Assembly: GCF_032362555.1 (NCBI RefSeq)
Contig: NC_083526.1
Span: forward strand, 2,190,001-2,254,000
Length of the DNA stretch: 64,000 bases
Direction of reading: 5' to 3'
Origin: Amyelois transitella
Taxonomy: Eukaryota > Arthropoda > Insecta > Lepidoptera > Pyralidae
Positions within the stretch are counted from its first letter, which is position 1, and every line of letters begins with the position of its first letter. The position numbers were made by a program, and so were the translations under genes. The notes under the pieces were generated by a model. The model did not search any database. It worked only from the letters and a program-made list of their open reading frames with translations, and had not been told where the DNA came from. Shown here piece by piece: positions 1 to 57,489 of this stretch.

Positions 1-1033
1 CTTTAAAATAAACTTGTAAAATAAAGCTTTATAAAATGCATTTTGGCAAATAAGTTGTAATTTGTTACCATGGTCAAAGAATTTTAACATGGTATTGCAT
101 TTTTTTCTTTTATATGAGCCTGGTGCTATTGTGATGTTTTAATTTTTAATCAAATTCATTCAAAACTGTTAACAACATAATTTAATTAAAAAACAAGCAC
201 TGTAACAAGAAAAAAATTGTAGATAATGTAACATAGTAGAATAAATTGATAACATTACTAAATATGTTTCAATACAAACTTAATTTACAATATTCTCAAT
301 TCACCATAAACATTATAAAAAGATGCTGAGTAACATTTGCATTTTTAAATAAAAATACAAAATACATCACATTAAAAAAATTGAGACCTTTGTTGACTGG
401 CAAACTAGTTTTTAAGCAAACACTCTTTTTCCTCCTGGCTTTAGTCCAGTTGCATCCTCAACTAGACCCCAGGAGTCCAGGGTATCGCCTTTGACCATGA
501 ATCATGGATTGGGTGAGTCAGGTTTTTACACGAAGCAACTCCCATCTGTACATGACCGAGGCGGGATTTGTACCTGTGCCTTTCTGCATATCACACATTT
601 TAACCGGGCACCAGTTCAACCACTGATGATCAGCTTTTTAAGCAAACACTAATAAACTGTATGTGCAAAGTAGAATAAAGTTCTATCCCAGCACATCAGT
701 AACAAGGACCTAAAAGAAAGCTATATTCTTCAATAGCTTATTTATTTAAAACTAGCTTTTACTCGCAGCTTCGCCCGCGATTAATTAGCGCCACCTACAA
801 AATAAATCAGGGTTTTCGTAAATACCATGTGAACCAAAGTTTTTATCACAATGAAGTTATCCTTTGCCTTACTCCAGACTGAATTATATATACGCGAATT
901 TTTTTTAAAGATTGGTTTAGAACCCTTGACGAGGTAAGAAACAAACAAACATACTTTCGCATTCATTAGTTGGAATATGTCTCTGCCCTCACCGCCAGGA
1001 AAGGGGCACAATTTTATGTGTAACATATAACAT
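1..1033. other. Intergenic, repeat fragments only
   Basis: No gene is supported here. The sequence is AT-rich. Positions about 420-610 carry a dispersed-repeat fragment that recurs in degraded form near 24590-24710, 40590-40700 and 61670-61740; the shared part resembles 'TACACGAAG' next to a GTCAGGTTT-like stretch. Positions about 752-800 resemble the 'cgcagcttcgcccgcg' tail of an RTE-like retroelement. Confidence 0.5.
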
Positions 1034-4000
1034 TCAAAAGCGATAGTTCTTGATAGCATATGCCATTAATGCAGCGGATATGAAATGCATGTTCTCAAAC
1101 GCTGAGAAGGTTCGAGCATTGCAGTGGTTGAAGAGGAAGTCATCGACCTCCTTACCGCGAGGACACGTGTGGAAGTATATCCATTGGCAAAGAGTGTTCT
1201 GCATGATATCCTGAAAGAAAATAAAATTTTGTAAGTCCGCCATTGTACATACGAGTATTCTTCAATCCAATTCCAAATCCAAATTCCAATGATTGTTTTG
1301 TATATGTTAACGGAAATGTATAAAATTATATTTATTAATTTATTTATGCTGCCCTATTTCTAGCTGTTGTTCTTGCCGTGGAAACTTCTTCTATTTGTAA
1401 CGTTCATCTTCGATAAGCGGTATTCTTAGCGTTTGTTAACATTCTAAATGATGCCCCTCGCCCCGCTATCCCCGCGTACTACGGGTTTTACATTTCCGAT
1501 TGCTATTTAGGAATCTAATTTAATTTATATTACACATTTCCGGCCTATTTTAGGAATTACATACATTTCCTAGGAATTGTATACAATGACGGATTACATA
1601 CATTTCCGTTAACATATATAAATACAGCTTTAGCACGATCCAATATGAAGGTTCCCCTGCAAAGGTTGAGGCCAGACTAGAGTCTGGTTACTTCATGTTA
1701 AAACCTAACTCTCCCGGTTCAGGATCATGGTTTAAAAGCGTTTCCTCGGCTCCTCTTCAGAGAGAACAGATAAGGGCCTATATCTAGCATTGCAGTGTGG
1801 GTTCCCGTACTCTTGGAATGAGGCATCTAAATGACTATTGTATGCCCGAAGTGGCGTCAGGATTTCCGAATCGTAAACCGTAGGCAAATGTGGAAGGTTA
1901 ATAGGAAATTGTTGAAAAGTGGACACATAATCTCTTTTGTACAAAGAGATCCACCTTCAATCAATATACTCCTTTTTTGAAGTCATTCAAATTTCTAAAC
2001 CCTTTCCCTAAGTATAACAAAAACTCTCCTGAAAACCGGAGCAAAACCGGTTCAGTTCAACGCGAAATAATTGCGACTAAACACAGAACAAAGAGGTCAA
2101 ACAGAGAACCTTTTTTTGAAGGCGGCTAAAACGAGCAAATATCAGAGAGAGACTTTCAAATAGTTCCAACCAACCTGTACTCCTAACTGGAACTCTTGCA
2201 TCTTCTCCTTCCTCGGAGAAGGCCCTGACAGGACAACACAAGTATTACGGAGTACTTCGCACTTATTGCTGCATTGCTTGCATTCCGTCGAAGATTTTTC
2301 GGACATCTCTTCGCTTGCCTTCTTCAGAAGAGGAGAAATAGGGGTCACCTGTTTCCGAGGAGAACCTTGTTAAAAACTCAACCTCATTATGTAAAGTCGG
2401 TAAAAATTCACTGTAAAACTGCCGCGCTTCAGAATACGAATCACACCAAGTGTGTTAACCCTTCAGCTGCGGCGGCTATACGCAAACTGCGCACCTCGTC
2501 TGCGGCGTTCAAGCGCCGCGGCGGACGGGCGCGCAGTGTCTTAGATTTTGTTGTATATCTGTATATAATTATTTGGGACCTACCCAAAAATTTATTTTTT
2601 TTTAAAGAGTTATAAATGAAGAATCATATGCAATAAATTTTGATGCGAAAAAACACTTGCGTTTATTATATTTAGGTCACTGAATTCAAAACTTACCGAA
2701 AAATTATCCATTGTAAATATTTTACTGATTTTGCAATTTACATCTTTCATATATTCTGTTTTTGTTTACTATTCCACAAAGTCCAATAATTGAGGAATTT
2801 AATGGTGCCAAAAAGTTATTATGTCCCAAGTAAAATTCTCTAAAATCGTCTTCACAAATAATCCAGTAAGAATCACGATTTCGCCATTTTGCAACTTCTA
2901 CAACGCAAACTTTATACTTCTATTACCATGAAAATATTGAAATGTAGATTTATTTGAGGCATTGTAATCGTAAATAATGTATTTGGCTTCACAAAACAAC
3001 AAGTAAAATGTATCTAAATGTCTTAAAATAGTATATTTCTACTAAAAACTGAAAACTTACCTAGAAAACTATCATTTTTTCAATTGGCTCGTTCATTCAC
3101 TTACATTTGTCTTTGCTCAACTGTAAGGGCAGTGTGGCAAACACGAAAAATTGTAGTTTCGTTTTTATATCAGACATATATAGCTTGCCTAGAGAAAATG
3201 AGCGAAAAACCATAGCCAAAAACTAGAAAAATGTATGTCTGTGTGCGTGACTTGTTTGCCTTGCTTGTCTGCTGATGGCCGTATCTGGACAAAATGGCGG
3301 CATGTGGTTAACGCCTAACTGCTGATGGCCGTATCCGTCCACTGTCAATGTTTGTCTAACTGCTTTAGGTCGGATCTGGGCATATCTACAGGATGTTTGT
3401 TTTTAGTTGTGCACGTTAGTAATTTGGAAAAGAGTGTCTTGTAAAAATAAAAATAAAATGTTGATTAAAATGTTTCTTTTATTGGAATACAAAAATGTAC
3501 AATGTTTATTGGTTTCCACTACTCTAAACCTATTCAATTCATAGTACATACTAGTAATTATTTTTACCAATGATTCATAGTACATACTAGGAATTATTTT
3601 TACCAATGAAAAAATAAAAATAAAATTACAATTTTGTAAAAATAATTACTGAACTGTTTTTGATAAGTTTTTTTTTTCAATAAATCTATAATGATAAGAA
3701 CTATGTAATATATAAAGACTTATTGAAAAAAAATACTTTCATCAAAATCGGTTCAGTAATTTTTGAGATAGGGAATAGTGTTGAAGTCGGTTGTTTTGTA
3801 AAAAAAAATACTTATTTTTAATGAATTATGAATTCAAATTAAACAAAAAAATTTTGCGTAGGAATCGAAATTTTAGATTCCCATCATTTCACTTTACTGA
3901 TAACAACAACGTTTTAAAAGGGTGTTATTTAAACAGTCTGCAGAATATTCATATGCAAAAAAGTTTACACAAATTCAGAAGCGCAAGTGAAGAATAGGAT

Positions 4001-7000
4001 AACAGAAGAATAGGCACCAAACTGCACTGCAGCAGTGTCTCTAAATGACGTCAACTTAAATTTTAAACAAAGCATGTTTGGACTCAAAACACGCATGCGT
4101 TCGATCGAGCTCAAGCCGACTGTAACCAAACTCAAACGTTTATTCAGAAAATAGGCCTTTGTAGGCACTTTTTTACGTCAAATTACATGTAAAAATTATC
4201 GATTTAGATAAATTAAATAGATATGTATTCAAAACTCAAATTTAAAATTATTAATTCTTTCAAAGCTAAAGACTACTAGCGCTTCGTAACCGACCACTGC
4301 AAGAGAAGAAACGCCGAAAGAAACTCTTTTCAACAGTATTGGTCGCCTACTCGCCTGAAGGGCTTTGAATTTTTTTTTTTTTTATTTTATTTGTATATTC
4401 ATTCTATGTATCTTATAACCCGTAGACCAAACCAGTGCAGTCCTAAGAAAGAAGGGATCAAAGAGAAAAAAGTATTTTTAAACAATAATCCTAATATTAA
4501 TATTTAAAAATAAAATAATGTATACATAAATAGATAAACACCCAAGATCAGAAGTCAATATGAAAAAGATAATTTACCAACTTGACCTGACTGGGGATCG
4601 AACCCGAGACCTGGAAGTAGCAGTCTGGTGTGTTGACTACTACATCACACATTTTATATAAATATATAACTAATATAAATAAATAGATAATATTTAATTA
4701 TATATTTTATATATATGTAACTACAGAAGTAATTTACAAACTATAGATTTTCTAAAGTATGATACTCAAGCCAACATTGGCCAACACAAATATACACCGT
4801 GCAATGACTGCACGCGATGTTACATTTTTGCCTGCATCTAACACAACGTCCCCTCTTAAATTTATCTTGTTTTTTGGTTCGCTCCTCGGTCACCTCATTA
4901 TGAACAGGGAAATGATTAAAATCCCTGTTCAGCCTGCTACAGGTGGGGATGGGGACCTGGCGCGAACGTGAGGAGACGTTTTGTCCGAATTCTAAGCAGA
5001 GCTCTTCAGCAAGCTTGAAACGAAATTGGCGGTGAGTCATTTTTTTATGCTGGCCAATGTTAGCACAATATATAATATATGCATTTAAAATAGATATATT
5101 TAAAAGACGTCTAAAAACTTTAATATACCATTTGATTCCCCTCTTTCTTTCTAATAAATACATGCTTAGCTTTTGATCTTTGAGATCGACGCCTCCCATG
5201 TATTTATTATATTCATGGACCACGACTGGTTTGGAGCAGGGTTGGCCAGCCCTGTGCCCTGGAGCCATATCTGTTTTGTGGTAAGTAGATACAGTGGTGA
5301 CAAGCTTCACATCTTTCCATGCTATGACGGATACATCACCACAGTGTCTACTTACCACACTACCCCTAGCCATCCTTTTATCCTGCAAATTTTGGATTTC
5401 TACGGGCGTGTCTTTTCGGCGACGGTTCAGAGTACCGACTACGTCAGTTTTATGTTTTTTTAGAAATTGGGTCAGAGGAACAGAATTATAAAAATTGTCC
5501 ATGAACAGGGTATATCCCTTGCCTAAATAGTTCTTGAAAAGCTCAAGGACTATTTTGGCAGTGGATGTAGTAAACCCGTAAACCGTTTCTGCAGTTGTCG
5601 TGCCTTTGCCGGCATACAAAATTAAATTTACTACGTATCCAGTTACGGCCTCACAGAGTTCATAACTTTTGATACCGAATCGAGCTGCTTTGGAACGAAT
5701 GCATTGTTTCCAGCTTAAATGACCCTTCCAAAGCAGCAACGATTCGTCTATCGATACTTCTCTGTGAGGCACGTAAATGGACTGGAATTTTTTATTTAAA
5801 TAATCTATAATAGGTTTTATTTTAGCTATTTTCTTATCACGCCCCTGTACATGTATGTTGTTGTTATCAGTAAAGTGCAAAAATTTTAAGAGCATTACGT
5901 AATGATCCCTTGACATCAGTTTTCGAAACTCCGGCATACCCATCACACCCGTCATCCAATATTCCTCTAACCTACTTCTTACACATATTGACATAAATAT
6001 CATCACACCTATAAGCCTATATAGTTCGGAAACCGAAGTTTCCACCCAGTCGTTCATGCGAGATTTACTTGGCATGGAGTCTCCGGTTTCAAAGAAACCG
6101 GTTATTGTTTCCCAAGCGTAATGATTCGTTTCGTGGACAATAGAATCCATCAGAGGCTGGTCCCAAATTTGAGTAAACAAGCCTAAAGGACTTGTTCCCT
6201 CAATTTTAGGACCAGCTTCTTCGTTGAAGTCCTCCCTGACCCCTCTAAATTCGTTAAAATCAGATGACCAAGTCAATGGCTCCTCACTAACTTCATCTTC
6301 AATAAAATCGTCATCTGATTCCAACATCTGCTGTAACTGATCGAGAGTCAATTCTTCCTCGGCATCCTCATCACTTCCAGAGTCGATGGCTAATTCTTCA
6401 GCCAGCTCAGGATCCAGTATGTCTTCATCCTATTAAAAAAACCAAACCCTAAACCACATGCAAGCATACACACAAACATAACAAAAGCGGGTATTGTTAG
6501 AGATGCCAACCACAATATTTTTATAAAAAGGAATAATTAGTGTATCCCAACGATGAACAGGAATAGAGATTCCTGTTCATTTTTATTCAATTAACTTTCA
6601 ATATATTCATGCCATATTGCCAATTTCGCTGAATTACGTTATTGAGCATACACCAAACACCTTTATATCAATGAAGTTACAATACATTCATACCGCATTG
6701 CCAATTTTAGCAGAATTGTGTTATTGAAGCACAAACCAAACACCCTTAGTTACATTACCTTAGTTACTGGATGGACTAGATTTCTATCAGATAGTCCGGT
6801 GCACGATGAGAGCGGCAATAAATAAAAATCCCTTTCTCAATGCAAGTAATTTATACTTTCAAAGAGTGTTATGAAAATGAAACTTACAGGTTCTCGGCCA
6901 AAAAGATTACGCGGCTGACCTTTCGTACGTTCCTCTGGTACCTAAAAAATAATTATTTTGTAAATAACATTGCATGTTGTGATAATAGGTAATATTTTGT

Positions 7001-10000
7001 TTCGATAATCCTTACAATAGACATCAATAAGTGAGCAATAAGTTAGTATACATCTCGACATATTATTATCTTGGTAGTTAAAAAAAAGTTGAACATCTAC
7101 TAAAGTTATCAAAAAAAAGAAAACCATTCTTACAGCAGCTACTTTTTCGCCGCCATGGACCAACTCATCCACGATCTCTATGGCTTCGCCTTCCACAGAT
7201 AAATTTTGGGGCCGCCAAGGCTGTAATAAAATATACGAAATAATCAGTTTTTGTTTTTAAAGTAAAAGGGAAAGTTAACAAAACTGGAAAATAACATACT
7301 CTAATCCTCCCTGATCCAGATGTCTCCAAGACTACATCTCTGCCCCGAATAAGGGATCCCTGAGGAGTTCTAGTCACCTCCAAGCCGACAAACATGCTTC
7401 TGGAAGTACTTGGGGTTTGGGGTTCCATTTTAATCTGTCAATAAAATAAAATTATTAGCATGTATTCAAACCAGACATCGATGTCATCAGAAAGTGCTCA
7501 CGGAGACAAAACTAACGAGCTAAAACACAGCGCGATACGAGTTACCGGAGCGTAGATCCTGTATACCACCTTCCGACTGCATCATCAGACCCTCGATGTC
7601 ACTTCATCAGAAAGTGCTCACGGAGACAAAACTAACGAGCTAAAACACAGCGCGATACGAGTTACCGGAGCGTAGATCCTGTATACCACCTTCCGACTGC
7701 ATCATCAGACCCTCGATGTCACTTCATCAGAAAGTGCTCACGGAGACAAAACTAACGAGCTAAAACACAGCGCGATACGAGTTACCGGAGCATAGATCCT
7801 GTATACTGTATACCACCTTCCGACTGCATCATCAGACCCTCGATGTCACTTCATCAGAAAGTGCTCACGGAGACAAAACTAACGAGCTAAAACACAGCGC
7901 GATACGAGTTACCGGAGCGTAGATCCTGTATACTGTATACCACCTTCCGACTGCATCATCAGACCCTCGATGTCACTTCATCAGAAAGTGCTCACTGAGA
8001 CAAAACTGACGAGCTAAAACACAGCGCGATACGAGTTACCGGAGCGTAGATCCTGTATACCACCTTCCGACTGCATCATCAGACCCTCGATGTCACTTCA
8101 TCAGAAAGTGCTCACGGAGACAAAACTAACGAGCTAAAACACAGCGCGATACGAGTTACCGGAGCATAGATCCTGTATACCACCTTCCGACTGCATCATC
8201 AGACCCTCGATGTCACTTCATCAGAAAGTGCTCACTGAGACAAAACTGACGAGCTAAAACACAGCGCGATACGAGTTACCGGAGCGTAGATCCTGTATAC
8301 CACCTTCCGACTGCATCATCAGACCCTCGATGTCACTTCATCAGAAAGTGCTCACGGAGACAAAACTAACGAGCTAAAACACAGCGCGATACGAGTTACC
8401 GGAGCGTAGATCCTGTATACCATCTCCCAACTATCATGACATCATGTCATCAAAACCAAACGACATTTTGACTAAAACCAATAAAATAAATTTCGTAGAT
8501 TTAGTTTCAATCAATGAATAAATCACAGAGGCTTTTGAAAGCATGCTGTATATTAGCGTCGCGATACAATACACAGACAGTGTACGACACAAGTAAGATG
8601 GCGGACATAGTGCGTATGTGTGCGTGTAACGGATTCTCAGTCTTGAAAAATATAAGATATTTACAAAATCCATGTATTTATTGTAAAAAAGTTAGTGTAT
8701 TTCAATAGTATAATAAATTTACTATCTAAAACCAATTATATCCATTACAGAGGTATTGGATATAATGCATAAACTAACACGAAAGAAATATGTAACACAC
8801 TCCATCTACTTTTGAAAAAGCTAAAATCCTTCTTTTTTTACTAAATCTATAAACTTTTACACGTAATTGCTTCGAAAGTAACTATATAATAACGAAATAA
8901 AAACATTTACATACCTGTTTGTAATTACAGCCAAAAAAGACGAGTTTTCTCACACGTTCTTCAGTCACTTTGCAACACAACGAAGTCACAATTTGAAATG
9001 ACTTGGTTAGCTAAATGAACGGATGAAATTCATATTTGACAGTTGTCTATGACGGCTTCATTCGTTAGAAATACATTTCAAATAATAAAACACCTTATTT
9101 CTTGTTATTAGATATTATATTTGTGTAAAAACTACGACGAGTGCATTTGGACGGATCCGGAACAAAGCATTCCTAGTACATGCCCGGATACGGCCTAAAG
9201 CTTACGAAGGGTTAAGAAGTCTGTAAGACTGCTAACTGCCGTAAATACCAAAGAAAAGAAAGTTACCAAAATTTTATTCTCAATGATATGTTCTGTAGCA
9301 TTAGTGAAAACGGTAACAAGTCCGATTTAGGCCAAATTGAGCTACATTTTAATATTGAGAATTTACAACACGCTCATTAAAAAAGAGTGTGAAAGTGTTT
9401 CTTCTGGTTGACCTTGTGCTATGATAAAAATGTAAAATGCACTAACGTTGCAACAACATTTGAAGCGAATGTTTGCCCCGAGCATGGGACAAAGAAGTAA
9501 ATAAGAATTCAGCACCGGATGCGGGGGTCCGATCCACGACACGTTCACACCCTGCATTGTCCCGAATTCTTCCTGAAAACAATTTATAATTTTATTTAGA
9601 GAGTTAATTGAAAATGAGAGACATAAATCTACTCGTAGACCAAGATAACTAGTCACATTTTCAGTTCATAGGGTTTCGAACCAGAACTCTTTGCAAAGTG
9701 GAGACAGGTATGTGAGAAAGCGAACGCCTGTCCACGTTTCACGTCATAATGAAAAGCGAAACAGCGATAGTTTTTCGCGCGATAAAAACAACGTCGCGCG
9801 TGCTGTAATACCACGGGAGCTGGCCCCGAAGCGTAGCGACGAAGCGTGCTCCTGGGAATACGCTAAGATATAAAACGTTGTGAATTACATACGCTATGCT
9901 AAGTGAGTGAATTATTTGAGATAGATAGGTAGATAGACTCTTTATTGCACCATAAGAAAAAGAAAAGCAGAAAAAAAACACAGACAATGAGGTACAAAAC

Positions 10001-11576
10001 CGGACTTATCGCTAAAGCAATCTCTTCCAGTCAACCTTAGGGTGGGAGGAAATTAAAATAAAAAGGCGATTAGCGCAGTACATATAAAATGAATTGCAAA
10101 GTACGATATACCTAAACCTAATATAAACACAATATAAATTTACATAAAAACACAATTAAATTTAAGAAAAATGAGATACTTATTTAGTCTAATATAGTTA
10201 AATAAATTTCTTGTAGCTGATGGTTATACTTACAAAAATAGACATGCAGGTCGCCAGGGCCTGAATACTCGCGTGTGTTCTGGACCTCATGCACAGGACT
10301 GGCACAGACGACTGCTGGGCGAACCTCTGGACGCACATGTGAGTTGTAGTGGCCACAAATATAGCGTCGGCCATGTATGAGAATACCCTGGAATATGGAA
10401 GGTTTACTGGAGGACGAAGCTCTCGATTTAAAAAAAAGTTTTCATTCCAGTTTAAGTATAATATTAATTATTTTATTATCACCATTCAATCATTCCCATG
10501 GATGTCATAAAAGACGACTGAGGGATTAGGCTTATAAATTTGGGATTCTTATTTTAGGCGATGGGGTAGAAACCTGTCTGTATTTAAATCTCTATCAAAA
10601 AAATTTCTATCATAAAGTCAAACAGCTAACGTGATCTTTTCAAGACTGTGGGCTCTGTCTACCTCGCAAGGGATTTACACGTATGTATGTTATCAAAACC
10701 GTTTTTTGATTGCGAAATCCCAAAGGACTTATTCACGAACGTTGAAAGACAATTTATCAATTTCTATTTCTAGTTTTGAAGTAAACTGGATTGGTGGAAA
10801 GAGAGAAGGTATATTGTCTCTCAAAGTTCGTGAACTCCTGAAGTCTCCAGGGAATTCGCAACCAACAAAACCGAGGCAGCGGATCGCATATCATCCATGA
10901 CAACGTCCAGTAAGGATTTCCTTCGGTTTCCTTTTAGACAGTATGACATTTGTTCCCCAAATAGTTGTCAGGTTTTTTCAAGACGTGACCATAGTAACCT
11001 TACCTTCCGTTATAGTCATACTCCCAGACAACATGGTCCACAATATTGACGTCGTAAGCGCCGAGAAGGGTGGCAGCCTTGGACACGGCCATGTTCAGCA
11101 TGGGTACATTCATTTCTTGTAATATCATCACCTTCGAGTTGGGCAGTATGTCCTAGAGAGCAAAGGATTTGGTGGAAACATTTCAAATTTGCTATTGTTA
11201 CATACTTAAGTACAACAAGGGCGTAGGGCAATGAAGGTAAGAGCTTTCACTGCTATCTGTATAGATTATGATGACCATAAGTCAGTATTGTAATGAAATT
11301 AATAAACCTTAAAAATAATTATATAAGTTTAAATATAGAATAAGAACTTTTCATTGGAACTTCTAATTGGAAGGGGAATAACGTTACGAGTAGTTTCACG
11401 TGGGCAGACCTTAGAGAAAAAATCTAGTGTTTTGATAAAATTTTCGTAATTTCACCATTCTCTTGTTGTGTGTGTCCCTTACGGCACATTTGAGGTTGAT
11501 TGCACTGTTTATTATGTCCATCACCATGCTTGCTGACCAGTTTTTGAAGCAAATCAGATGACGTGGTTTGGACGGG
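1034..11576 (-). CDS. Ornithine carbamoyltransferase-like protein, probably catalytically inactive; N-terminal exon missing
   Basis: Six exons join with consistent phases: 11456-11576, 11004-11152, 10234-10387, 9447-9572, 2175-2348 and 1034-1210 (stop TGA at 1034-1036), giving about 299 residues. The order and content follow OTCase: an N-terminal helix region (HLICFKNWSASMVMDIINS), MADAIFVA, an IQALA segment, VSWIG, and a C-terminal FHTCPRGKEVDDFLF block. OTCase makes citrulline from ornithine and carbamoyl phosphate, normally in mitochondria. Here the carbamoyl-phosphate STRTR motif is replaced by a segment around NVPMLNMAV, HPxQ reads HASIQ, the ornithine-binding DGNN region reads GPPHP, and HCLP reads HTCP. 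A carbamoyltransferase fold without the chemistry is therefore likely. The first coding exon and any targeting peptide were not found; exon 11456-11576 needs a codon started upstream. The fourth intron (2349-9446) contains a piggyBac element. Confidence 0.8.
1301..1618. mobile_element. Small TIR element (MITE), possibly piggyBac-like
   Basis: The ends 1301-1321 and 1598-1618 are a perfect 21-bp inverted repeat (core TTAACGGAAATGTAT). A TTAA lies five bases inside each end, so the true element may run from TTAA to TTAA, as in piggyBac-derived MITEs. It carries no coding potential and sits in the last intron of the OTC-like gene. Confidence 0.6.
3537..3608. repeat. Two-copy 36-bp tandem repeat
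   Basis: A unit beginning ATTCATAGTACATACTAG is present twice with one difference, in the 3' non-coding part of the piggyBac element. Confidence 0.6.
4575..4650 (-). repeat. tRNA-derived SINE head fragment
   Basis: On the minus strand the sequence contains GGTTCGATCCCC, a pol III B box, preceded by tRNA-like sequence. It is followed on the plus side by AT-rich DNA just 3' of the piggyBac transposase stop. It is probably a SINE inserted into the transposon's 3' region. It does not form a full tRNA. Confidence 0.45.
4741..7428 (-). CDS. piggyBac transposase (DDE_Tnp_1_7), four coding exons
   Basis: Exons 7300-7428 (starts MEPQTPSTSR), 7134-7220, 6888-6941 and 4741-6429 join in phase 0 at all three introns, giving 652 aa. 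The acidic N-terminal region (residues about 90-145) precedes the catalytic domain. The piggyBac aspartates are all present: D318 in SIDESLLLWKG, D401 in LFMDNFYNS, and D505/D508 in YNKYMGGVDLKDQ. The C-terminal Cys/His-rich finger (about 613-645, CVRCRQKC...CSHC) is intact. piggyBac transposases cut and paste DNA at TTAA. The first exon's acceptor (TGACAG at 7435-7440), 6 bp before the ATG, implies a 5' UTR intron. A CAG|GTATGT donor at 8915 fits, making that intron 7435-8914. No disabling mutation is seen, so it could be active or kept for a host role. Confidence 0.92.
7472..8425 (-). repeat. Eight-copy minisatellite, 120-bp unit
   Basis: Units start at CAGAAAGTGCTCAC, at 7488, 7608, 7728, 7855, 7982, 8102, 8222 and 8342. 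Six intervals or units are 120 bp; two (after 7728 and 7855) are 127 bp because of a 7-bp duplication, ACTGTAT. Units 5 and 7 share the variants CACTGAG and CTGACG, while units 6 and 8 carry CACGGAG and CTAACG, so the last four units form a two-unit (240-bp) higher-order repeat. The array lies in the predicted 5' UTR intron of the piggyBac transposase. Spacers are not unique, so it is not CRISPR-like. Confidence 0.9.
8915..8990 (-). other. Predicted 5' UTR exon end of piggyBac transposase gene
   Basis: The minus strand reads ACAAACAG|GTATGTAAAT with the junction at 8915/8914, a strong donor. It pairs with the acceptor six bases before the transposase ATG. The transcription start is not determined, so the upper limit is a guess. 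Confidence 0.4.
9915..10045 (-). repeat. Retrotransposon 3'-end fragment
   Basis: A (TAGA)n stretch is followed by CTTTATTGCACCATAA and later by a GGACTTATCGCTAAAGCAATCTC-like block. The same arrangement recurs at about 11805-11925 and, in weaker form, at 33405-33510. It is read as the 3' end of a non-LTR element in minus orientation, lying in an intron of the OTC-like gene. Confidence 0.5.
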
Positions 11577-12817
11577 CTGAAAATAAAAGATTTCTAACTT
11601 GTATGAAACGCTAATCGATGCTATTGTGGCGAGGAAAACATTGTGAGTTACTGAGATCAATTCTTAGCGTATCGACATTGGCAGATCATGTATAGAAAAT
11701 GTAAGAAGTGAGCTTTGGCCGACACGGGGCAAAATAACAAAAGTGGATGGAGCTAAAGAAGTACTTAGGTATGTATCTAGGGATCGTGAACTGAATCGTG
11801 GCAAGCAGAAAGATAGATAGATAAATAAAACTCTTTTTTGCACCATAACAATAAAACATACAAAACAGCACAAAACAGATAGAGTTGGCACAAAGGCGGA
11901 CTTATCGCTGATGCAATCTCTTCAGCCTTTGATGAAAGATGCAGTGATCAATCATGATAATAATGTTAGATCCTTATATTACTTATGATATACTGTGGAT
12001 GAGTAGAGAAGAAGAATAAGTTCAAACCAGCAGCATTCCATTGAGCAGTTCCTCGTCCCTTTGATTGCACATTGTGATATAATTTGTAACAGTTTCATGA
12101 TTTAGTTTCTATCAGAAAATGAGGTAACATCTCACAAGAATTTTAGGATAATTCGACACAAAAACATTTGTTATTGTGATTGTTTGGTGGTTTTCATTTT
12201 GACAATTCATGAAAAAGTGTCATTGCTGCGAAGAGAATGACTCTTTTAATTGTTAACCTCTGACGTAAAAATAAGGTGTTATAAGTTTGACTCCGAACAA
12301 GAGAGATTCAAGAGGTTGGTTGCGTCCTCACCTTTCTGGAGAGAAGTTTGACTATCTGTCAGATCAGGTGAATGAAGCTCGTGGCGTTATCTCCTTCTGG
12401 ATGTGTTATAATCTCATAAATGGAGCCCGGGGTTCGCCCTTACATGGCTAATAGAATATGCTATTTAACGTGTAGTTATTACTTACTAGCGTAGCTTATA
12501 CAGATGTTATAAACCTTTCTCAGAAAATCATCTGTCTCACATTGTAAACGCGAACAAAATCCGTTCACATCTTTTCGAGATTAGCGGATACATACAGAAT
12601 GAGAAAAGCAGGGATTTTACTTTATTATATTATATGTAGTGCTTGTGATGATTTCAATTATTTGCTTCGGATGTTAGCGTTCCATAGAAATACAGTATAA
12701 AGAAATCTGTATACAGCTGTTTTGCACGCTTGTTGTCTCAATGACGGAATATATAATTTTATCACTTAGTTTTTAATTATATTTTTGTTCGTTTGTGTGC
12801 TGTTCTGTTTAGTGAAA
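11577..12817. other. Divergent intergenic region between OTC-like gene and ST1
   Basis: This should hold the missing first exon(s) of the OTC-like gene (minus) and the promoter of ST1 (plus). A minus-strand donor-like AGAAAG|GTGAGG at about 12331 is present, but the frame that would join the next exon meets a stop codon 20 bases upstream, so I did not accept it as an exon. The rest is AT-rich with one retrotransposon tail. Confidence 0.5.
11805..11925 (-). repeat. Retrotransposon 3'-end fragment, second copy
   Basis: This shares the GATAGATAGAT tail, the TTTTGCACCATAA block and GGCGGACTTATCGCTGATGC with the copy at 9915. It lies upstream of the first recognised exon of the OTC-like gene. Confidence 0.5.
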
Positions 12818-15800
12818 ATGTTAGTTTATCAATTAAATCCTTTGGTGAAACAGTATCTGATAGTTATAACAGGTAGTGTACTTAAATATTATAAACAAAA
12901 CAAGCTTTTGATTTTACTGCATCATTCCTTTTAATTGCAAGTCCTTAATTTATAACGACATCGTCATGGTATCGTAATGTATATAGTCCTTAATATATAA
13001 CTACCCCTTGCCAGAGACTTCTATTTCGTTGGTTTTATTAATTTATGATTTTTCTTTCAGACGATGGGCTAGCAACCTGTCACTATTACTGATTCCATTA
13101 ATTAACTTGGCATTTAACCCTTTTGACTATAGGCTACTTAGGGCTATAGACGTGATTAGTATATGTGTATAGAATCAGAAATACAGGTTCCTTAGGAAGT
13201 TTTCCTTCCTAAGTTTTTCTGAAATTGCTTAGTTTTTTTTTATTATTTCAGTAAATTTGAACTTGATCAGTTCAGGCATGACCTTGGGATGGGCTTCTCC
13301 GATGCTAGTGAAGCTATCAGATAAGGAAACTACTCCTCTTCCACGACCCCTGACACAGGATGAAGGGTCATGGGTGGTGTCAGTGACTTTTATTGGTGGT
13401 ATTCTTTGTAAGTATTACCATTTTTTTTGTAGACCAGGCAGTTGTTAGGAAAGCCAGGGTGATGATAGGGAAAGCGGACCCTAGGTCAGGTCTGTAGTCT
13501 CCACCTACCTCACCGATAAGAGCATAAGTTCCATTTTTATTGTAGCAGGTATGTGGAATTAGTAGTGGATATGGATTTCCTTACTTAATTGATTGGAAAC
13601 TTCTACTATGTCTCTACTGCTCTCCAACGTAACTACCTCAGCCAGATCTGGACCAAAAAAGATTACATCCGTAAGGATTAAGAAGCTACGGTACTTTAGA
13701 TCTTTTTTAAATGATTAACATCCCTATTCAGAAGGAAAGCGAATAAGTAAGTATATCAATTTGATGTTGATTTTTCCAGTGTTCATCACGCCCACCATGG
13801 TCAATTTCTTGGGGAGAAAATACACTATTCCATTCAGTTTTCTACCACATTTCACAGCGGGTCTCCTCTTTATATTCGGCAGAAGATTCTGGATGGTTTT
13901 AGCTGGTAGACTTCTCTGTGGGCTCGGTAACGCTGTTCTGTTCTACGCTGTGCCTATTTATTCCTCCGAGATTGCTAGTGTGAGTGACCATCTTTTTTTG
14001 TTTTTTCTGCTTACTTTTTGTAAGTCTTAATTGTTATTAACTATGAATTAGCATTAGAAACGCAACCATGGTGATAGGATTACGTGAGAAAGTTTTTGAG
14101 GGGAACGATTGTACTCATATTATGCGAATTAAAAAATTTAATATAAATCCAACACGTATTTGATCAAACCCAGTTGCTTAAAATGTGTTACTATTTTCCA
14201 TTGTAAGAGCATTAGTTTGATAATTAGGGCTATGATGAGAGAATATCGTTGTCTGTCCTTATCATGTTTATATTTAATCCATCACATTTTAAATTTCAGA
14301 AAGAGATCCGAGGGAGTTTAGGAACGATACTACAAGTATCGTGCAGTCTCGGCTTCTTGATTATGGTGTCTATCGGCCCACATTTGTCTTATTTATCGTG
14401 CAATATTATGTTTACTATATTTGTGGTCGTCACATTCATCCCAAGCTTATTTGTGCCTGAGACTCCTTATTGCCTATTTATTAAAGGTAAGATATTATAA
14501 CTTTGAGTGAAAGATCTCGTAAGACTTTCTACGATTTTTATGTTTTCAGGGGAAAATACCGGTGAAACAGACCCGGTTTGGATTACCATGCTAAAGCCCA
14601 ACATTTAACTTAAATGTTTTCAGTACTTACCTGCTCCGTAATAATACGATATTTGTAACTTACTGGTAATGACATGTACCAAGTACTACTTATTTCAATA
14701 AATAAACATAGATTACTAACATTTTTGTCCTTTTTATTTCCAGGTAAAACAGAAGAATCAACAAAACTTTTATCTTCTCTTAGGGGTTCTAAATCATTAG
14801 CAGATGAAGAAATATCTGCCTATACATCAACCACTGACGAAACGATTATAAAATCAAAGATCATTAGCAAGACTTTTATAAAGGCTATGATGATATTGAT
14901 TATTTTGTCACTTTTAGGTATGATATCTGGGCACAATTGCGTAGCATTTTACCTTCAGACTATATGTATATCAACAAACAGTTCTTTAAGTCCTGAATTA
15001 GCAACTGCTGTTGTTGCATTTCTGTCTTTCTTAGCTAGTTGTTCGTCATCTTTTACGACGGATAGATGTGGAAGGAAGCCAATTTTGTGTTGGACTGCTT
15101 TAGGGATGTCTTTTGGCATGGTGAGTAGTTCTTTTTATCAAAGTAGGTACTAAGTATTTAGGCTTTTTGTACATTACCTCAACATTGCTGCTTTCATCAA
15201 ATTAGGAGTGTTAGATTTGAAGTCTTGAACCATGCCATGCATGGTTTTTAAAAGATGATTATTCTTAACTTACAGATTGGTTTAGGCACATTTTTTTACC
15301 TAAAAGACAGCGACTATGAAATCACAGGATTAATCAATTTTGTGCCTCTTGTATCCATGATCTTGGTAGTCATATTTTACGGCGCAGGTAAAAAATTTTT
15401 TTTTTATAGCTAGATATCTCTTCTACTCTATGACTACAAAAAATATTTTGAAGGCACCTGTATTGGGTGTGTATATTTTGTGTTTCCGCAAATCCCAAAA
15501 CTTATTATTATTATTATGTGTATGAAAATATTATTTGTTCTGACTTTCAGGATTCGCCTCACTCTTCTTCCCACTGGTGCCAGAGTTATTTGATGGTCCA
15601 GGACGAGCAATAGGTACCGCTGTTGCAAACTTTAGCATAACAGCTCTCACTTTTGGCACTCTCAAAATTTTCCCTCTAATATTACAAAATTTAGGACCAG
15701 CTACAACATTTTACGGTTTTGCGGGAATGTGTATAGTTAAATGTTTGTTCGTTGCATTCTTTTTGCCAGAAACGAAGGGTAAAACCATTTTTGAGATACA

Positions 15801-15846
15801 AGAAGCCTTAGGTGCTAAAAGAAATAAATTTGAAACAAAAATTTAG
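12818..15846 (+). CDS. Sugar porter ST1 (facilitated trehalose transporter Tret1-like), seven exons
   Basis: Exons 12818-12872, 13252-13407, 13780-13979, 14300-14486, 14744-15120, 15276-15387 and 15551-15846 join to 460 aa; the first base may be off by two. It is a Major Facilitator Superfamily sugar porter, expected to have 12 membrane helices and to move sugars such as trehalose or glucose across the plasma membrane. Visible motifs are FLGRKY after helix 2, YSSEIAS, PETPY before the central loop, TDRCGRKP in loop 8-9 and PETKG (about 435-439) before a short cytoplasmic tail. The usual QQxSG of helix 7 reads LLGMISGHNCVAF, so both glutamines are missing and the substrate may differ. It lies 258 bp from convergent ST2, a paralogue with the same exon structure. 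Confidence 0.92.
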
Positions 15847-16033
15847 GCGTTGAGAATATTTATAAAAAGTTTGGAGGATTCTTTAATATATAAGTGCAAA
15901 AACGGAGCCTTGCTTCAATGTTATTTGCAATTTTTAAGTTTAATTAGGTTATAGGTATTTCGAAAACATATCTAACACCTCTTTATTTTGTAAATTAGTA
16001 TAATTATGAAAATATTACAACTGTTTTCTTATA

Positions 16034-16039
16034 AATAAA
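16034..16039 (+). other. Candidate polyadenylation signal for ST1
   Basis: AATAAA lies 188 bp after the ST1 stop. The signal for ST2 on the other strand is 32 bp away, so the two transcripts may end face to face or overlap. Confidence 0.4.
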
Positions 16040-16070
16040 CGAATATCTATCATTATAACTAATCACTATT

Positions 16071-16076
16071 TTTATT
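16071..16076 (-). other. Candidate polyadenylation signal for ST2
   Basis: AATAAA on the minus strand lies 29 bp beyond the ST2 stop codon. Confidence 0.45.
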
Positions 16077-16104
16077 TCACTATAAATTGTTCCTTTTCCC
16101 AACA

Positions 16105-19100
16105 TCACTTTCCCAATATTTCTTGGATTTCTGCGAAGGACCTGCCTTTGGTCTCGGGAATGACAAAGGCAGTAAACAGGCAGAACAAAATGCAGATGAC
16201 GCCAAATCCCCAATAAGTCATTGCGTATCCAATGCTGCCTGTTAAGAAGGGCGTGGATTTGGTAATTAAGAAGCCGGCAGAAGTTGCTACCAGAATCGCG
16301 AAAGACGTGCCCGTTGCTCGGGTTCTTCCTTCAAATACTTCTGATACTAACACCCAGAGTATTGATGCTATACCTGGAAATAAAATTAAAAATGAAACCA
16401 ACACAAAATTAATTGAGAGCACAGCACTAATTCTATATCTTATTCTCGACTTTATCATACTGCTATTACTTATGTGTTGAAAAATAATTTAATGAAAAAT
16501 AAGAAAAAGAGAAAATGATCTAATCTCTACAGTCAAGCAAACTCACCAGAACTATAGCAGAACACAATTAATATAATCGACACAAGAGGGAGATAGTTCA
16601 TGAAACCGGTAACTTCATCGTGATGCTCCGTCACTTCGAAGAATGTCCCCAAGCCAACCTGGAAAGCACACAAAATTTTAAAGAATAACAACCAAACGAA
16701 GAAAAAGAAGTATGCAGAGATCATGGCAAGTGGAGAGATGTAGACTCTGCAACCACTCCGGGAAAGAGGTGAGTGATTTCATGTATGTTACGTTACAACC
16801 AGAACCTTGAAATTTATCAAAGAGAAGTAATGAAAATGGGACTTATAAAGAGAAAATAGAGGACCATAAAGAATAATTCTAATATATATGCCCTTAAAAA
16901 GGTAAAACGGGGTTCACTTTCAACTTACCAAACCCAGAGTGACCCCAGAAGTGGTGCCGATCAAAATAGCCTTCCTTCCAAATCTGTCAGTGACGAAAGT
17001 TGTGCAAAAACTGGCCATCAGTTGAATACTACCCACAATTAATGAAGATATCTCTGGCCTCAGACTAGTATTGGTTGCTTCCAGAACAGTTTGAAGATAA
17101 TAAGCCACAGCTGGATAGCCATTTGCTTGCGAGCAAAATCCAACGACAACAGCGATCAAAGCTCCTTTAAGGAATACTTTGTTTTTTAATAGCTCCGTTG
17201 TAGCAACGAGTTCTTTCCCTTCGTCTTGAGAGACAGCTTGGTATTCCTTTATTTCTTCGTGTGCTAGTATATCTGATCCTCGTAGTTTTAGAAGTATTTT
17301 TCGAGCATCCTCAGTTTTTCCTGTAAAATTTCATAAATTAACTGAATAGTGCCGTGTCATGTGATTTCCGACACTTCATTTGAGTTTGCGTTCATCACGT
17401 AAGGGGTCATCTTGCTTACGGCCAGGCAGATTGAGGTCAAGCGTACTCAAATCTATTATAAAAAACTTTAGAATAAGCGAACAATCATCTAATACAAACT
17501 TCCATGCTGGCTGGTAGCGAAGAGAAATTGTGGTATTTTGCCATTCTGCTTCTCTTCCCCTAGATTGTTAAAGTCAATCAAGGGACAGGGCAGTACATTT
17601 GGGGTATTTCTTTTAGTAATGTACTTGAATTTTTTTTATGGATTTATTGAAAACAGCGTTATGAGGGTATGTTCTGATGCGAAGGAAGACATAGCGACAA
17701 GAATGGAAAAGGGTATGCTAAGATGGTTTCGTCATGTGAAGCAGACGAATGAAAGCAGGTTGACCAAGGATACAAAGAGAGTGTGAATAGAAAGGTAGAA
17801 GTGGGAAGGCCTGGACGAATGTGACTTGCTCAAATTAAGGACCTCCTGGCAAAAGGTCAGGTCAAGAGTACCCGAAACCGAAGCTTGCATTTAAGAGCGT
17901 TATAATGTGGATAAAACGAAAAAAGTATGTAGAAATCGTGGGAAGTGGAAAGATGTAGTCTCTGCGCACCCAATCGGGATATAAATTATACATATGTATC
18001 TATATACGGGATAATAAATCTATACTAATATTATAAAGCTGAAGAGTTTGTTTGTTTGTTTAAACGCTCTAATCTCAAGAACTACTGGTTCAAATTGAAA
18101 AATTCTTTTTGCGTCGCATAGACCATTTATCGAGGAAGGCTTCAGGCTATATAACATTATGCTGCAACTATAAGGAGCAAAGAAATAATGGATATGTGAA
18201 AAAAACGGGGAAAATGATTCATCGTTGAGGGAATGAAGCCCAAAATAACTATTCCACGTGGACGAAATCGCGGGCACAGCTAATAAATATATACGGGACA
18301 AACAAATTTATGTATGATTGCAAACAATCTCCAAATTCCTCGGTAGTAATAGCCGCCGTCATATCATGACAATGTCAAAGATAAGGGTTATTATGATGTA
18401 AGTACGTATGATAGTAAATATGTCATAATCTGATTTGGACAGTCAATAACTCAAATCTGATATGACCACCGGTCGAGACTATAAATTATTATACAAAGGA
18501 AGATTCAAGCCGGTACTACTAAATATTGTGTAAAAGCACAGATCAAAGTCATACCTAGTCGATTAATGAATTAAATAACATAGATTTTAATGTCTCCAGG
18601 TCAATATTTCATGATACCATACATACATATAATCGCGTCTATATTCCTTGCGGGGTAGACAGAGCCAACAGTCTTGAAAAGACTGATAAGCCACGTTCAA
18701 CTGTTCGGCTTAATGATAGAACTGAGATTCAAATAGTGACAGATTGCTAGCCTATCGCCTACCAGAAGAATCTCAAGTTTATAAGCATACCCTTTTGTCG
18801 CCTTCTACGACATCCATCTATCCATCATGATACCAATAGTTTTTAAAGGCAAAATTAAAGTATGATTATATCGATCACAGCTAAACTTGGCCTTTCACAG
18901 TCTTTTCCAAACTGTCGACTCTGTCTATCCCGTAAGGGAAAAGATAAGGGAAGGTATGTTATGTATGTATTGATTTGAATATATTTTGTGTTCATTAAAT
19001 CATCGTGATAAGGGAATGTTCTGATGTGAAAGAAGATAAATTAACAGGAATAGAAAAGGGTATGCTAAAATGGTTTGGTCATGTGGAGAGGATGAATGAA

Positions 19101-22100
19101 GGTAGGTTGACCAAGCGAATACATAGACGCACGAAGGTTATCGACATTAAATTTCATTAAATTCTTGACTTACCTTTAGAAAATAGAAAGTAGGGACTGT
19201 CAGGTAGAAACAGTATAGGTATGCTGCTACCGGTCACCACACATAGCAAGATGAGGTTCAAGGTCCAGTAAGATACAAATGGACCCACACCGAGGGCAAT
19301 AAGTACGCCGATTGAAGAATTAATTTGGAGTAAGGCCCCGAGGGAGCCACGGACTTCTTTCTGCAATAAGAGATAACATTTAGTTTTTTTTTTCTTATAT
19401 TTTTTTTTAATTTAAATTAAATAGAAGATTATTGACTTGTTCCGCTGCTTTTTCTACTCTACTTCTCCAATTTCGAATATCTTGAAAAAGGTAGATGTTA
19501 GGAGTACCCGTCGAGTAATCGTCGAATATGCATGAAAAGAGTAATGAGTGCGGAGGAAGCAGGAGAGGTCTAGTCTCTGCCTACCCCAAAAAAACATACA
19601 TACATATGGTCACGTCTATATCCCTTGTGGGGTAGACAGAGCCATGCTCAGCTATTTGGCTCAATGATAGAATTGAGAGTCAAATAGTGACGGGTTGCTA
19701 GCAATGCTAGCCCATCGCCTAAAAAAAGAATCCCAAGTTTGTAAGCCTATCCCTTAGTCACCTTTTACGACATCATAGGAAAGAGATGGAGTAATCCTAT
19801 TCTTTTTGGTACCAATGGGACAAAAGCGTGATGGTATGTTCTGTTCTACACTTGCGTTTTTCATAAGTATTAAATTAAGTGAGGTATAGTTGTGATGAAG
19901 TCATTTAAATGTTACGTCGTTAGACTTAGATATGAACTAATTTATCTGTGTGATTTGTAGCTTTATCTACTCTGTTTTTTGGTGTAAGTAAAAAGTAATT
20001 ACTATAAGTAAAAATATAAATAAAATATCTATCGCTTAGACCAAAGAAAAACTTCCACGCTGGCTTGGTAGCGAATAAAAAACATAGTGTATGCTAGCTG
20101 CTTCTCGTCCTTTGCAGACTGTAAGAGTCAATCAAGGGATTACGTTGTTGACGTCACTGTTCATCAAATTCCATCATTGGGCCACACAGCTGAACGTGGC
20201 CTTTCGGTTTTCAAAACTGTCGGGTCTGCGTACCCCGAAAGGTATATAGTCGTGATTATATTTAATTTTGTAGTTCTCCTTGTAACTCGTTAAATAGAAT
20301 AAACTTTCTCGTATAGAAAATGAGAATTGTCCTATTCGGGTCATATATACTTATCTCGGGTCTGCTGGAAGAGATTTCTTTTGAAATAAGCAGAACCTTT
20401 GTAATTTTGTTTCTTGTGTTTATCAGTCTCGATGTTTTCTGTCTACATAAATTAGTAAATAAATTGTGATTGTGACTTCTTTCATTAAAGATTAAAATAG
20501 ACTTACACTAGCCATCTCCGACGCGTAAGTGGCGACCGTAGTGTAAGCGAGGGCGTCCAGGACTCCAGAGAGGATCCTGCCGGCGAGGATCACCCAGTAG
20601 GTCCTGGCGAGCAGGTACATGAGGGCCATGGGTATTCGCGGGACACATGACAAGATCAAGCAGTACTTTCTACCAACCGCATCTAGGAGGTACCCAGTCA
20701 GGAAAATTCCTGGAAAGAAATCAGGATTAAAATCGTTGTCATTCTCGAGGTAAGAGTTGCCGGGCGTTCGTCTACAATTGGATACAATTAGGTTAACTGT
20801 CCGGTCAAAATGGCATCCGGCATGTCTGGATTTTGTTAGGCTTTTTATATTGCGAATTAAGAAACAGGAATTTCATGTTCAAGAATATGATGAGGTGATT
20901 CATGATGATCGAATATCGACGACCATAAAAAGAAGCATAACCTCAAGCAAGTCATGAAATACCTGTAGGTATATTAATGCCAACATTTGGGGGAACAGAA
21001 ATACTCAACAATGGGCGAGCGATTTTCTTACCCAAATTTTCTATCCGGCCATTACGTTTGGCGACTTGCCAACCCTACACATAGCATTTGTGCCGGTCGG
21101 ATATTTCTCTTAATCAGAAAGCCTAACATGTTTCCAGAAAGAAAAGTAACGGATACCTACGAGCCAAGACCCTTGTTCCGCTGTCATAGGTCCCGAGAGA
21201 AACGTCTGTCCCGCTGTTCAACTTCATGAGAAGTAAAAGAGAACACTAAAGCTTGTCTTACCAAAAAGTCTTTGGCAAAAGGTCAGGTCGAGAGTATTAA
21301 GAACAGATGAGCTTGGAAAGTTGGTCCTACCAAAAATGCTGTGTTGTAGCGAAAAGTCAGGTCAAGAGGTTTAAACCGACGAGCTTGTATGAGGAGAGAG
21401 CGAAAGGCATGTAGCTTTACAACTCCCGATAACTAGGTTTGTTTTCTATACATCGCTGAGAACGCTCCCCGGCCCTTAAGCCCTAGCCCTAAAGCTGAGT
21501 CGACTCGCGACACGAAAACAAACCATCCGCATCTTTTGTGTAAGTATACGTCCCAATGCCCGCCTGATACTTCAGCCAGGAGGCGCCCGCCTCGATGCTG
21601 ATTCCCGACGTCAGATGACAACCACGGACTACATAATTGAATCTCAATTCTATCATTAAGCCTGTTAGGCTTAATGATAGAATGACCTGTTGGAACGGAG
21701 ACGGAGACGGTAAATATACATATATATGTGTTTGATGTGCAAATTATTATGAACCTTATGTGTGTTTTCTTACCTGGTATTCCAGATAGAAAAGATACGG
21801 ATACCAGCCAAGACCCTTGGTCCACTGTGATGGGTCCCTGGAGAACGGTGTCTGTCCCGTTGGTCAACTTCACGAGAACTGGGGATGACCAGCCGAGACC
21901 AAATCCAGTGCATAGTGCGCTCAGGTTGGCTGTGAAAAGAAATACAAATTGTCATGTCCAAATCCATTCACATACTTTTTGATCAATAAAGATATTATTA
22001 AACACAGCTGAAACAAATTAATGGTGTTAAGACACTATACTTTAGAGTTTTTGTCGAAGTTAAGTTTCAGAACCGTTCGTTAGAGTATTTGACGTCAACC

Positions 22101-46713: not shown

Positions 46714-47337
46714 TTATTTTTTCTTGAAAATACTCTTGCGATTTTCCGAGCAATAACAAGGCTTAAGGCACAACAGCCGCGACCCTTCTTCAGTGCACTT
46801 CTGCCCTAAATTCTGACAATTTATAGTTTCTTTCAGCCCCAGCATCAAGTTGTTAATCTGCTGCGACAATTGTCCAACTGTGACACACACTTGGTCTATT
46901 TTAGATTCCAGATTTCCATTAGAAGAAAATCCTCTGACTGCATCACCGGCGGTGACTTCAATATCTTCTGTTTCTTTCCTTTTCTTGAATATAGAACTCT
47001 TTGGACTGAATCGTATAAAAGGTTCTGATCGCTTCGTTCCTACAGCAACGGTTTTCGTTTCATAATATGCGTCTTGAGTTCTTTGAGCGATTCCGTCATA
47101 GGTTTCTTCATCTGTATAATATTCTTTTTGAACTTCCGTCTTGCAATCAGGACAAGGACAGTTGATTTTGAGAACACCGGTTTTGATATCTTTTATCTTT
47201 CCTGGGGTGTAGTGTATGCAGTTGAAATGTACCCAGGTGGCGCAGACGCCCTGGCATTGGAGACCATTCTTCTGGGTGACTGGCTTCAGGCAAATCTTGC
47301 AGGGATTTTTAACTTTAATGCATTTTGATTTTAACAT
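46714..47337 (-). CDS. PHD-like zinc-finger protein B, single exon
   Basis: An intact 207-aa ORF. Residues about 13-64 carry the same finger as protein A (CKICLK, CQGVCATWVHFNC, CPCPDC), with the same spacing and the shared phrase KIKDIKTGVLKI versus KILEIKNGIIEI. The middle is polar with basic KRSEPFIRFSPKS and FKKRKE. A helix near 150-175 (VCVTVGQLSQQINNLMLGL) corresponds to the last exon of protein A. A Cys-containing basic end follows (CLKPCYCSENRKSIFKKK). It lies 5.5 kb upstream of gene A in the same orientation, so tandem duplication is likely. The lack of introns could mean intron loss or a retrocopy. Function unknown; a chromatin or protein-binding role is possible. Confidence 0.75.
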   Translation of the reverse strand: MLKSKCIKVKNPCKICLKPVTQKNGLQCQGVCATWVHFNCIHYTPGKIKDIKTGVLKINCPCPDCKTEVQKEYYTDEETYDGIAQRTQDAYYETKTVAVGTKRSEPFIRFSPKSSIFKKRKETEDIEVTAGDAVRGFSSNGNLESKIDQVCVTVGQLSQQINNLMLGLKETINCQNLGQKCTEEGSRLLCLKPCYCSENRKSIFKKK

Positions 47338-57472: not shown

Positions 57473-57489
57473 ATGTTTAAAATAGTTAT

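What the first reader, a model, noticed from the sequence alone, without database searches (positions are those of the whole stretch)
1034..11576. An OTCase-fold gene that has lost its active-site motifs
Six phase-consistent exons reproduce the full OTCase order, including MADA, VSWIG and a C-terminal VDDFLF block, yet STRTR, HPxQ and the ornithine DGNN site are gone and HCLP is altered. Open reading through all exons suggests selection to keep the protein, so it may be a pseudoenzyme with a binding or scaffold role, unusual for insects that lack a full urea cycle.
Basis: partly seen in the sequence, partly recalled or inferred. Interest (0 to 1): 0.75.

Follow-up and report, generated by a model that had tools for sequence, protein, structure and literature searches.

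The report
OTC-derived gene without catalytic residues
What looks like an insect gene descended from the urea-cycle enzyme ornithine transcarbamylase has kept its reading frame and ancient introns but lost its catalytic residues; such genes are already reported from many moths and other arthropods, so this is a further example and not a new kind of thing.

Summary
Six minus-strand exons (11576-1034) join in phase at GT-AG sites into 290 open codons. The protein is homologous to OTC rather than ATCase: NCBIfam OTC 79.9 bits, ATCase 16.6; best solved structure human OTC, E 2.8e-15. Of 16 conserved ligand positions 1 is kept, against 20 of 51 other conserved positions, so carbamoyl transfer is not expected.

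Added here: the four introns in the stretch alignable to human OTC share phase with, and lie within one codon of, human introns (2 exact; chance about 1e-6). That argues for descent from the animal OTC gene. Intron 4 is large because it holds a 6,753-base piggyBac-like element. The exon with the start codon was not found.

The kind is known: PMC12419136 reports OTC homologues without the active site in 25 Lepidoptera and other arthropods, role unknown. A selected pseudoenzyme is the best reading. A binding or scaffold role is inference: no orthologue, transcript or structure was examined and dN/dS was not computed. No call identified the species.

The parts
11483..11576 (-). exon 1 of the sequence found (OTC N-terminal region, residues 1-31); preceded by an acceptor in phase 2, so an upstream coding exon is missing
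   Evidence: TTTTATTTTCAG acceptor and GTAAGG donor; aligns with the N-terminal helix region of ArgI
11004..11152 (-). exon 2 (residues 32-80 and two bases of codon 81); holds the place of the SxRT motif, which here reads VPML, and a shortened 80s loop
10234..10387 (-). exon 3 (last base of codon 81 to residue 132): SYMADA, and HASIQ in place of HPxQ
9447..9572 (-). exon 4 (residues 133-174): VSWIG, then PPHP in place of DGNN; ends in KCCCN
2175..2348 (-). exon 5 (residues 175-232): ornithine-domain region; D263 and the S and M of SMG replaced (the G is kept); cysteines 197, 200, 204, 211
1034..1210 (-). exon 6 (residues 233-290 and stop): HTCP in place of HCLP, then KEVDDFLF
741..746 (-). possible polyadenylation signal AATAAA, 287 bases after the stop
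   Evidence: pattern only
2459..9211 (-). piggyBac-like element inserted in intron 4, flanked by TTAA on both sides, ends CCCTTC and GAAGGG; without it intron 4 would be 341 bases
   Evidence: transposase ORF 4741-6429, Pfam DDE_Tnp_1_7 298 bits

Best explanation
This is a protein-coding gene, a descendant of the animal mitochondrial OTC gene, whose product has lost carbamoyl-phosphate and ornithine chemistry but is still kept as a folded protein: a pseudoenzyme. Shown: the exon chain, homology to OTC above ATCase, preferential loss of ligand residues, and intron positions shared with human OTC. Inferred: that it is transcribed and selected, that it folds as a two-domain subunit, and that it works by binding a partner (another enzyme of arginine/ornithine metabolism, or its own kind as a trimer) rather than by catalysis.
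For: Open 290-codon frame over six GT-AG exons. OTC model 79.9 bits against ATCase 16.6. Human OTC is the best solved-structure hit. Introns within one codon and in the same phase as four human OTC introns, 2 of 4 exact (chance of 4 of 4 about 1e-6). Ligand positions kept 1 of 16, other conserved positions 20 of 51. Neutral drift rarely leaves an open frame (0.05% of 2,000 runs at 60% identity). GC3 0.595 against 0.32-0.38 GC in the introns. A Bombyx gene, LOC101738188, 'ornithine carbamoyltransferase-like', has measured, changing expression in eggs (PMC7013401, table row seen); that it is the orthologue is not shown. Same class in 25 Lepidoptera (PMC12419136).
Against: No orthologue DNA was available, so no dN/dS. 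No transcript for this genome. The start-codon exon was not found. A 6.75-kb transposon sits in intron 4. OTCace_N scores 21.5 bits, below its cut-off of 29.9. Identity to the human fragment is only 49 of 206 aligned positions, the tree branch is very long (6.96 changes per column) and the residue make-up is unlike the other rows, so relaxed or changed selection is possible. GC3 is also higher than in the four neighbouring transporter pieces measured (0.27-0.47), so it is not a clean sign of coding. The species is not identified by any search.
Confidence: 0.72

Rival explanations
1. A re-purposed enzyme: the fold keeps a cleft but has taken on a different, non-carbamoyl reaction or ligand, possibly using the new cysteines.
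For: 16 Cys in 290 residues, against 2-9 in each of 18 bacterial OTCs, with runs at 171-173 and 197-211. The frame is kept although the old site is gone.
Against: Fifteen of 16 conserved ligand positions are replaced and the 80s loop is shortened. No alternative site can be named from one sequence.
Confidence: 0.13
2. A decaying pseudogene: the gene lost its function recently in this lineage, perhaps helped by the piggyBac-like insertion in intron 4.
For: Transposon in the intron, its transposase frame on the same strand; no start-codon exon found; weak donor sites at some exons (AAC|GTTAGT).
Against: No stop, frameshift or broken GT-AG in the six exons; neutral drift would leave about 8 stops at 60% identity; losses are concentrated at ligand positions.
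Confidence: 0.1
3. A working OTC with an altered active site.
For: Homology to OTC, and such genes have been counted as OTC (PMC6444547 counts the arginine pathway as complete in the monarch, passages seen).
Against: SxRT, the His and Pro of HPxQ, N199, D263, the S and M of SMG, C303, L304 and R330 are not conserved. PMC12419136 cites undetected OTC activity in the fat body of a silkmoth and a cockroach, and no CPS1 in arthropods (passages seen).
Confidence: 0.03
4. A gene acquired from bacteria, or an intronless retrocopy that later gained introns.
For: Functional OTC is reported absent from insects (PMC12419136); the tree does not resolve the place of this protein beside human and Thermus OTC.
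Against: Intron positions and phases match the human gene; best solved-structure hit is human OTC.
Confidence: 0.02

Closest known systems
Arthropod 'OTC' homologues of KEGG K00611 that lack the active site (PMC12419136)
   Same: OTC homologue in which the positions of D263, C303, R141, H168, L304 and R330 are not conserved; identity to mammalian OTC is low in both (24% here over the human fragment; 27.43% for their best hit)
   Different: Here the residue aligned with Q171 is Gln, which that paper lists as absent.
Animal mitochondrial ornithine transcarbamylase (human OTC, 1c9y)
   Same: Domain order, MADA, SWIG and EVDD-F blocks, and four intron positions and phases within one codon
   Different: Lacks the three family motifs intact, most of the DxxxSMG motif and the full 80s loop; cysteine-rich; human intron 7 has no counterpart, nor, by inference where human sequence was not printed or a position is recalled, introns 3 and 9
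Transcarbamylases of unknown function (YTCase, and sequences without the essential motifs, PMC4581275)
   Same: Family homology without a known reaction
   Different: YTCase uses carbamoyl phosphate (PMC4581275, passages); this gene does not keep those residues

Membership tests
Ornithine transcarbamylase (enzyme) | SxRT motif for the phosphate of carbamoyl phosphate | tested here: not met
   aligned with VPML; motif definition from PMC4581275 (passages)
Ornithine transcarbamylase (enzyme) | HPxQ motif | tested here: not met
   HASIQ; only the Gln is in register
Ornithine transcarbamylase (enzyme) | HxLP (HCLP) motif | tested here: not met
   HTCP: His and Pro kept, Leu replaced
Ornithine transcarbamylase (enzyme) | DxxxSMG ornithine motif | tested here: not met
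   D231, S235, M236 of ArgI align with T, L, S; the Gly is kept
Ornithine transcarbamylase (enzyme) | NCBIfam TIGR00658 cut-off (280.85 bits) | tested here: not met
   79.9 bits, E 1.9e-22; the sequence lacks its first exon
Transcarbamylase fold (homology) | Pfam OTCace_N followed by OTCace | tested here: met
   OTCace 40.7 bits, above cut-off 29.4; OTCace_N in order at E 2.7e-4 but 21.5 bits, below its cut-off of 29.9; the three-dimensional fold itself was not modelled
Descendant of the animal OTC gene | shared intron positions and phases | tested here: met
   4 of 4 introns in the alignable block within one codon, same phase; 2 exact; human positions from PMC4390381, PMC9593096, PMC7712605, PMC12351844
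Arthropod OTC homologues without active site | D263, C303, R141, H168, L304 and R330 not conserved | tested here: met
   T, T, A, A, C and gap at these columns; if the gap is moved, R330 faces M
Arthropod OTC homologues without active site | Q171 absent | tested here: not met
   Q123 aligns with Q171
Arthropod OTC homologues without active site | sequence orthology to the lepidopteran members | not testable with these tools
   no insect genomes held; scans of viral contigs and genome contigs with the protein confirmed 0 relatives
Pseudoenzyme under selection | dN/dS well below 1 | not testable with these tools
   no orthologue DNA available

The most novel reading that the evidence does not exclude
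Insects did not simply lose OTC. In this lineage the ancestral gene was kept, introns and all, and turned into a cysteine-rich, non-catalytic protein that senses redox or metal state and regulates arginine or ornithine metabolism by binding its enzymes.
Probability: 0.1. Interest if true: 0.65.

Novelty: new member of a known kind. Interest (0 to 1): 0.36.

Why it matters
It changes 'OTC was lost in insects' into 'the OTC gene persists without its catalysis' for at least this lineage, and gives gene-structure evidence (shared introns) for a descent that the published work left as 'a possible shared ancestry'. It is also a warning against calling the urea cycle complete from an OTC annotation. 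The open question, what a dead OTC does for the animal, becomes testable by knockout or interaction work.

Tried and rejected
Looking for relatives with the spliced protein in viral contigs (4 pattern matches, 0 confirmed) and genome contigs (15 matches, 0 confirmed) gave nothing, so dN/dS between orthologues could not be computed. A repeat-derived DNA pattern in viral contigs, tried to place the species, found 0. No second OTC-like copy was seen in the window: tblastn of the protein gave the six exons and two hits at E 3.3 and 4.9; tblastn of the 19-sequence bacterial panel gave six hits at E 0.029 or worse, two of them on exon 3. The rest of the genome is not held, so an intact OTC elsewhere is not excluded.

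The missing 5' exon was sought from 11577 to 14500. With donor score 0 or more, three short candidates remained (13534-13509, 12593-12541, 12167-12136). None can be preferred, and the donors of this gene score from -1.5 to 7.3 on the same scale, so the true exon may score lower or lie further away.

Bacterial origin, a retrocopy and ATCase descent were considered and put low on intron positions and model scores. The tree puts the protein on the OTC side, apart from the two ATCase-type rows, but with a very long branch, a deviant residue make-up and unresolved order beside human and Thermus, so I do not lean on it.

Structure prediction was not run: the tool takes proteins that the window DNA gives letter for letter, and a spliced protein is not clearly that, so I did not send it. 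The AlphaFold model of the Helicoverpa relative is mentioned in PMC12419136; I did not see it.
Full report
What is there. On the minus strand, six pieces (11576-11483, 11152-11004, 10387-10234, 9572-9447, 2348-2175, 1210-1034) join at GT-AG borders in phase (five internal introns, phases 0, 2, 0, 0, 0) into 290 codons without a stop, ending in TGA at 1036-1034. An AATAAA lies 287 bases after the stop.

Is it more than chance. The stop density of the four introns other than intron 4, over three frames, is 153 of 2,569 codons. At the base composition of those introns, the chance of 290 open codons is 2e-9; at the composition of the exons themselves it is 5e-7. None of 200,000 random sets of six pieces of the same sizes, taken from window 12000-64000, was stop-free throughout.

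Homology. Pfam gives OTCace 40.7 bits (cut-off 29.4) over residues 139-283 and OTCace_N 21.5 bits (below its cut-off of 29.9) over residues 5-132. NCBIfam gives the OTC equivalog 79.9 bits (E 1.9e-22), far below its own cut-off of 280.85 but far above ATCase at 16.6. Among solved structures human OTC is first (E 2.8e-15), then sheep OTC. In a 14-row tree the protein falls on the OTC side, separate from the two ATCase-type rows, with a branch of 6.96 changes per column, a deviant residue make-up and an unresolved place.

The active site. I aligned the protein with 18 bacterial OTCs and the printed fragments of human, Thermus and Bacillus OTC. The panel: of the 80 loci, 79 gave a usable reading frame; 19 representatives, E. 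coli ArgI included, were left at under 70% identity, and L065 was then dropped because it looks like an ATCase. Of 17 listed ligand positions 16 are conserved in the panel, and the moth protein keeps 1 (the Gln of HPxQ). Of 51 other equally conserved positions it keeps 20 (Fisher p 0.014). With the strictest threshold it is 1 of 15 against 18 of 40 (p 0.0099). The list of ligand positions comes from PMC12419136 (passages), D231, C273 and L274 being the counterparts of human D263, C303 and L304; T56, R59, N167 and M168 I added from recall. The 80s loop is shortened, since the columns of Q82, G84, K86 and E87 are gaps. The motifs SxRT, HPxQ and HxLP define the transcarbamylases (PMC4581275, passages), and none is intact here. 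By that definition this is not an OTC enzyme, although it is an OTC homologue.

Descent. Human OTC introns lie after c.77, c.298, c.386, c.540, c.663, c.717 and c.867 (PMC12351844 table passage; PMC7712605 table passages; PMC4390381, start of abstract in the listing, for c.386 as last base of exon 4; PMC9593096 passage; PMC7390877 passages); c.216 and c.1005 are recalled only. One row of PMC12351844 (c.514-35, 'intron 5') does not fit these boundaries; I followed PMC7712605, which gives c.540+265 in intron 5 and c.540 in exon 5. In the block where human sequence was printed, the moth introns map to codon 129 phase 2 (human: codon 129 phase 2), 180|181 (human 180|181), 222|223 (human 221|222) and 288|289 (human 289|290). 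All four have the same phase, two are exact and two are one codon off in weakly aligned stretches, where the offset depends on the placing of gaps. Four random introns do this with probability about 1e-6 (simulation of 2,000,000 draws 1e-6, formula 5.7e-7; uniform placement; the set of six human positions included the recalled c.1005). The moth intron between exons 1 and 2 is in phase 0 and, by eye, falls near the human boundary that a deletion in PMC7712605 places between c.207 and c.226; this agrees but is not counted. A shared gene structure argues strongly against a bacterial transfer or a retrocopy as the source.

Selection. Without orthologues I could not compute dN/dS. Indirectly: letting this coding sequence drift without selection to only 60% identity gave 7.8 stops on average and none in 0.05% of 2,000 runs, while the real protein is at 49 of 206 identical positions with the human fragment and has none. 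The model has no insertions or deletions and starts from the moth sequence, so it is a rough guide, and it cannot exclude a very recent loss of function. GC3 is 0.595 against 0.32-0.38 GC in the introns, but four neighbouring transporter pieces have GC3 of only 0.27-0.47, so composition alone proves little.

The large intron. Intron 4 (2349-9446) contains a 6,753-base element between two TTAA sites (2459-9211, ends CCCTTC/GAAGGG) with a 562-codon transposase frame on the same strand (Pfam DDE_Tnp_1_7, 298 bits); without it the intron would have 341 bases. The splice sites on both sides are in place. Whether the element truncates some transcripts is open.

Prior work. PMC12419136 (Insect Mol Biol 2025; abstract, section 6 and passages seen) found KEGG 'OTC' homologues in 25 Lepidoptera, 6 Coleoptera and a few other arthropods, all without the active-site residues, and said that further work is needed on another role. 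PMC6444547 counted the arginine pathway as complete in the monarch (passages). Older reports name the honeybee as the insect with OTC (PMC2258195, passage; PMC4581275, passages); that differs from PMC12419136 and I did not resolve it. PMC7013401 lists a Bombyx 'ornithine carbamoyltransferase-like' gene with expression fold change 0.23 between diapause-terminated and diapause-destined eggs (table row). So the kind is known. In the listings of ten searches of the paper library and the passages I opened I saw no report of its intron positions or of a function; the library lacks most subscription journals.

Mechanism. I commit to a pseudoenzyme that is kept for binding rather than chemistry. The loss of both substrate sites together with retention of other conserved positions points that way. 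The partner is unknown; arginase or other arginine/ornithine enzymes are a guess (yeast OTC binds arginase, recalled). An oddity is the cysteine content: 16 in 290 residues, against 2-9 in each of 18 bacterial OTCs (P 3e-4 at an assumed 2% per residue), with CCC at 171-173 and C197, C200, C204, C211. If conserved in relatives, this would suggest metal or redox binding.

Noticed in passing
window 2459-9211: piggyBac-like element with TTAA flanks; transposase in a 562-codon frame (4741-6429) and, by eye, possible small upstream exons to about 7437
   Followed up: partly
window 7484-8422: 7.7 copies of a 120-base tandem repeat (96% matches) inside the piggyBac-like element
   Followed up: no
window 13200-22000 and 55400-57500: sugar transporter (Sugar_tr) exons on both strands, four pieces confirmed by Pfam; the nearest transporter runs divergently from the OTC-like gene
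   Followed up: partly
window 37695-38882: mariner-type transposase in two frames in the same register with one in-frame stop between them
   Followed up: no
window 40854-41240 and 46714-47463: two similar cysteine-rich zinc-finger-like frames on the minus strand (both end a motif in CPCPxC), judged by eye, possibly from a mobile element
   Followed up: no
OTC-like protein, residues 171-211 (exons 4 and 5): unusual runs of cysteines (CCC and CxxCxxxC); the 18 bacterial OTCs have 2-9 cysteines each in all
   Followed up: partly
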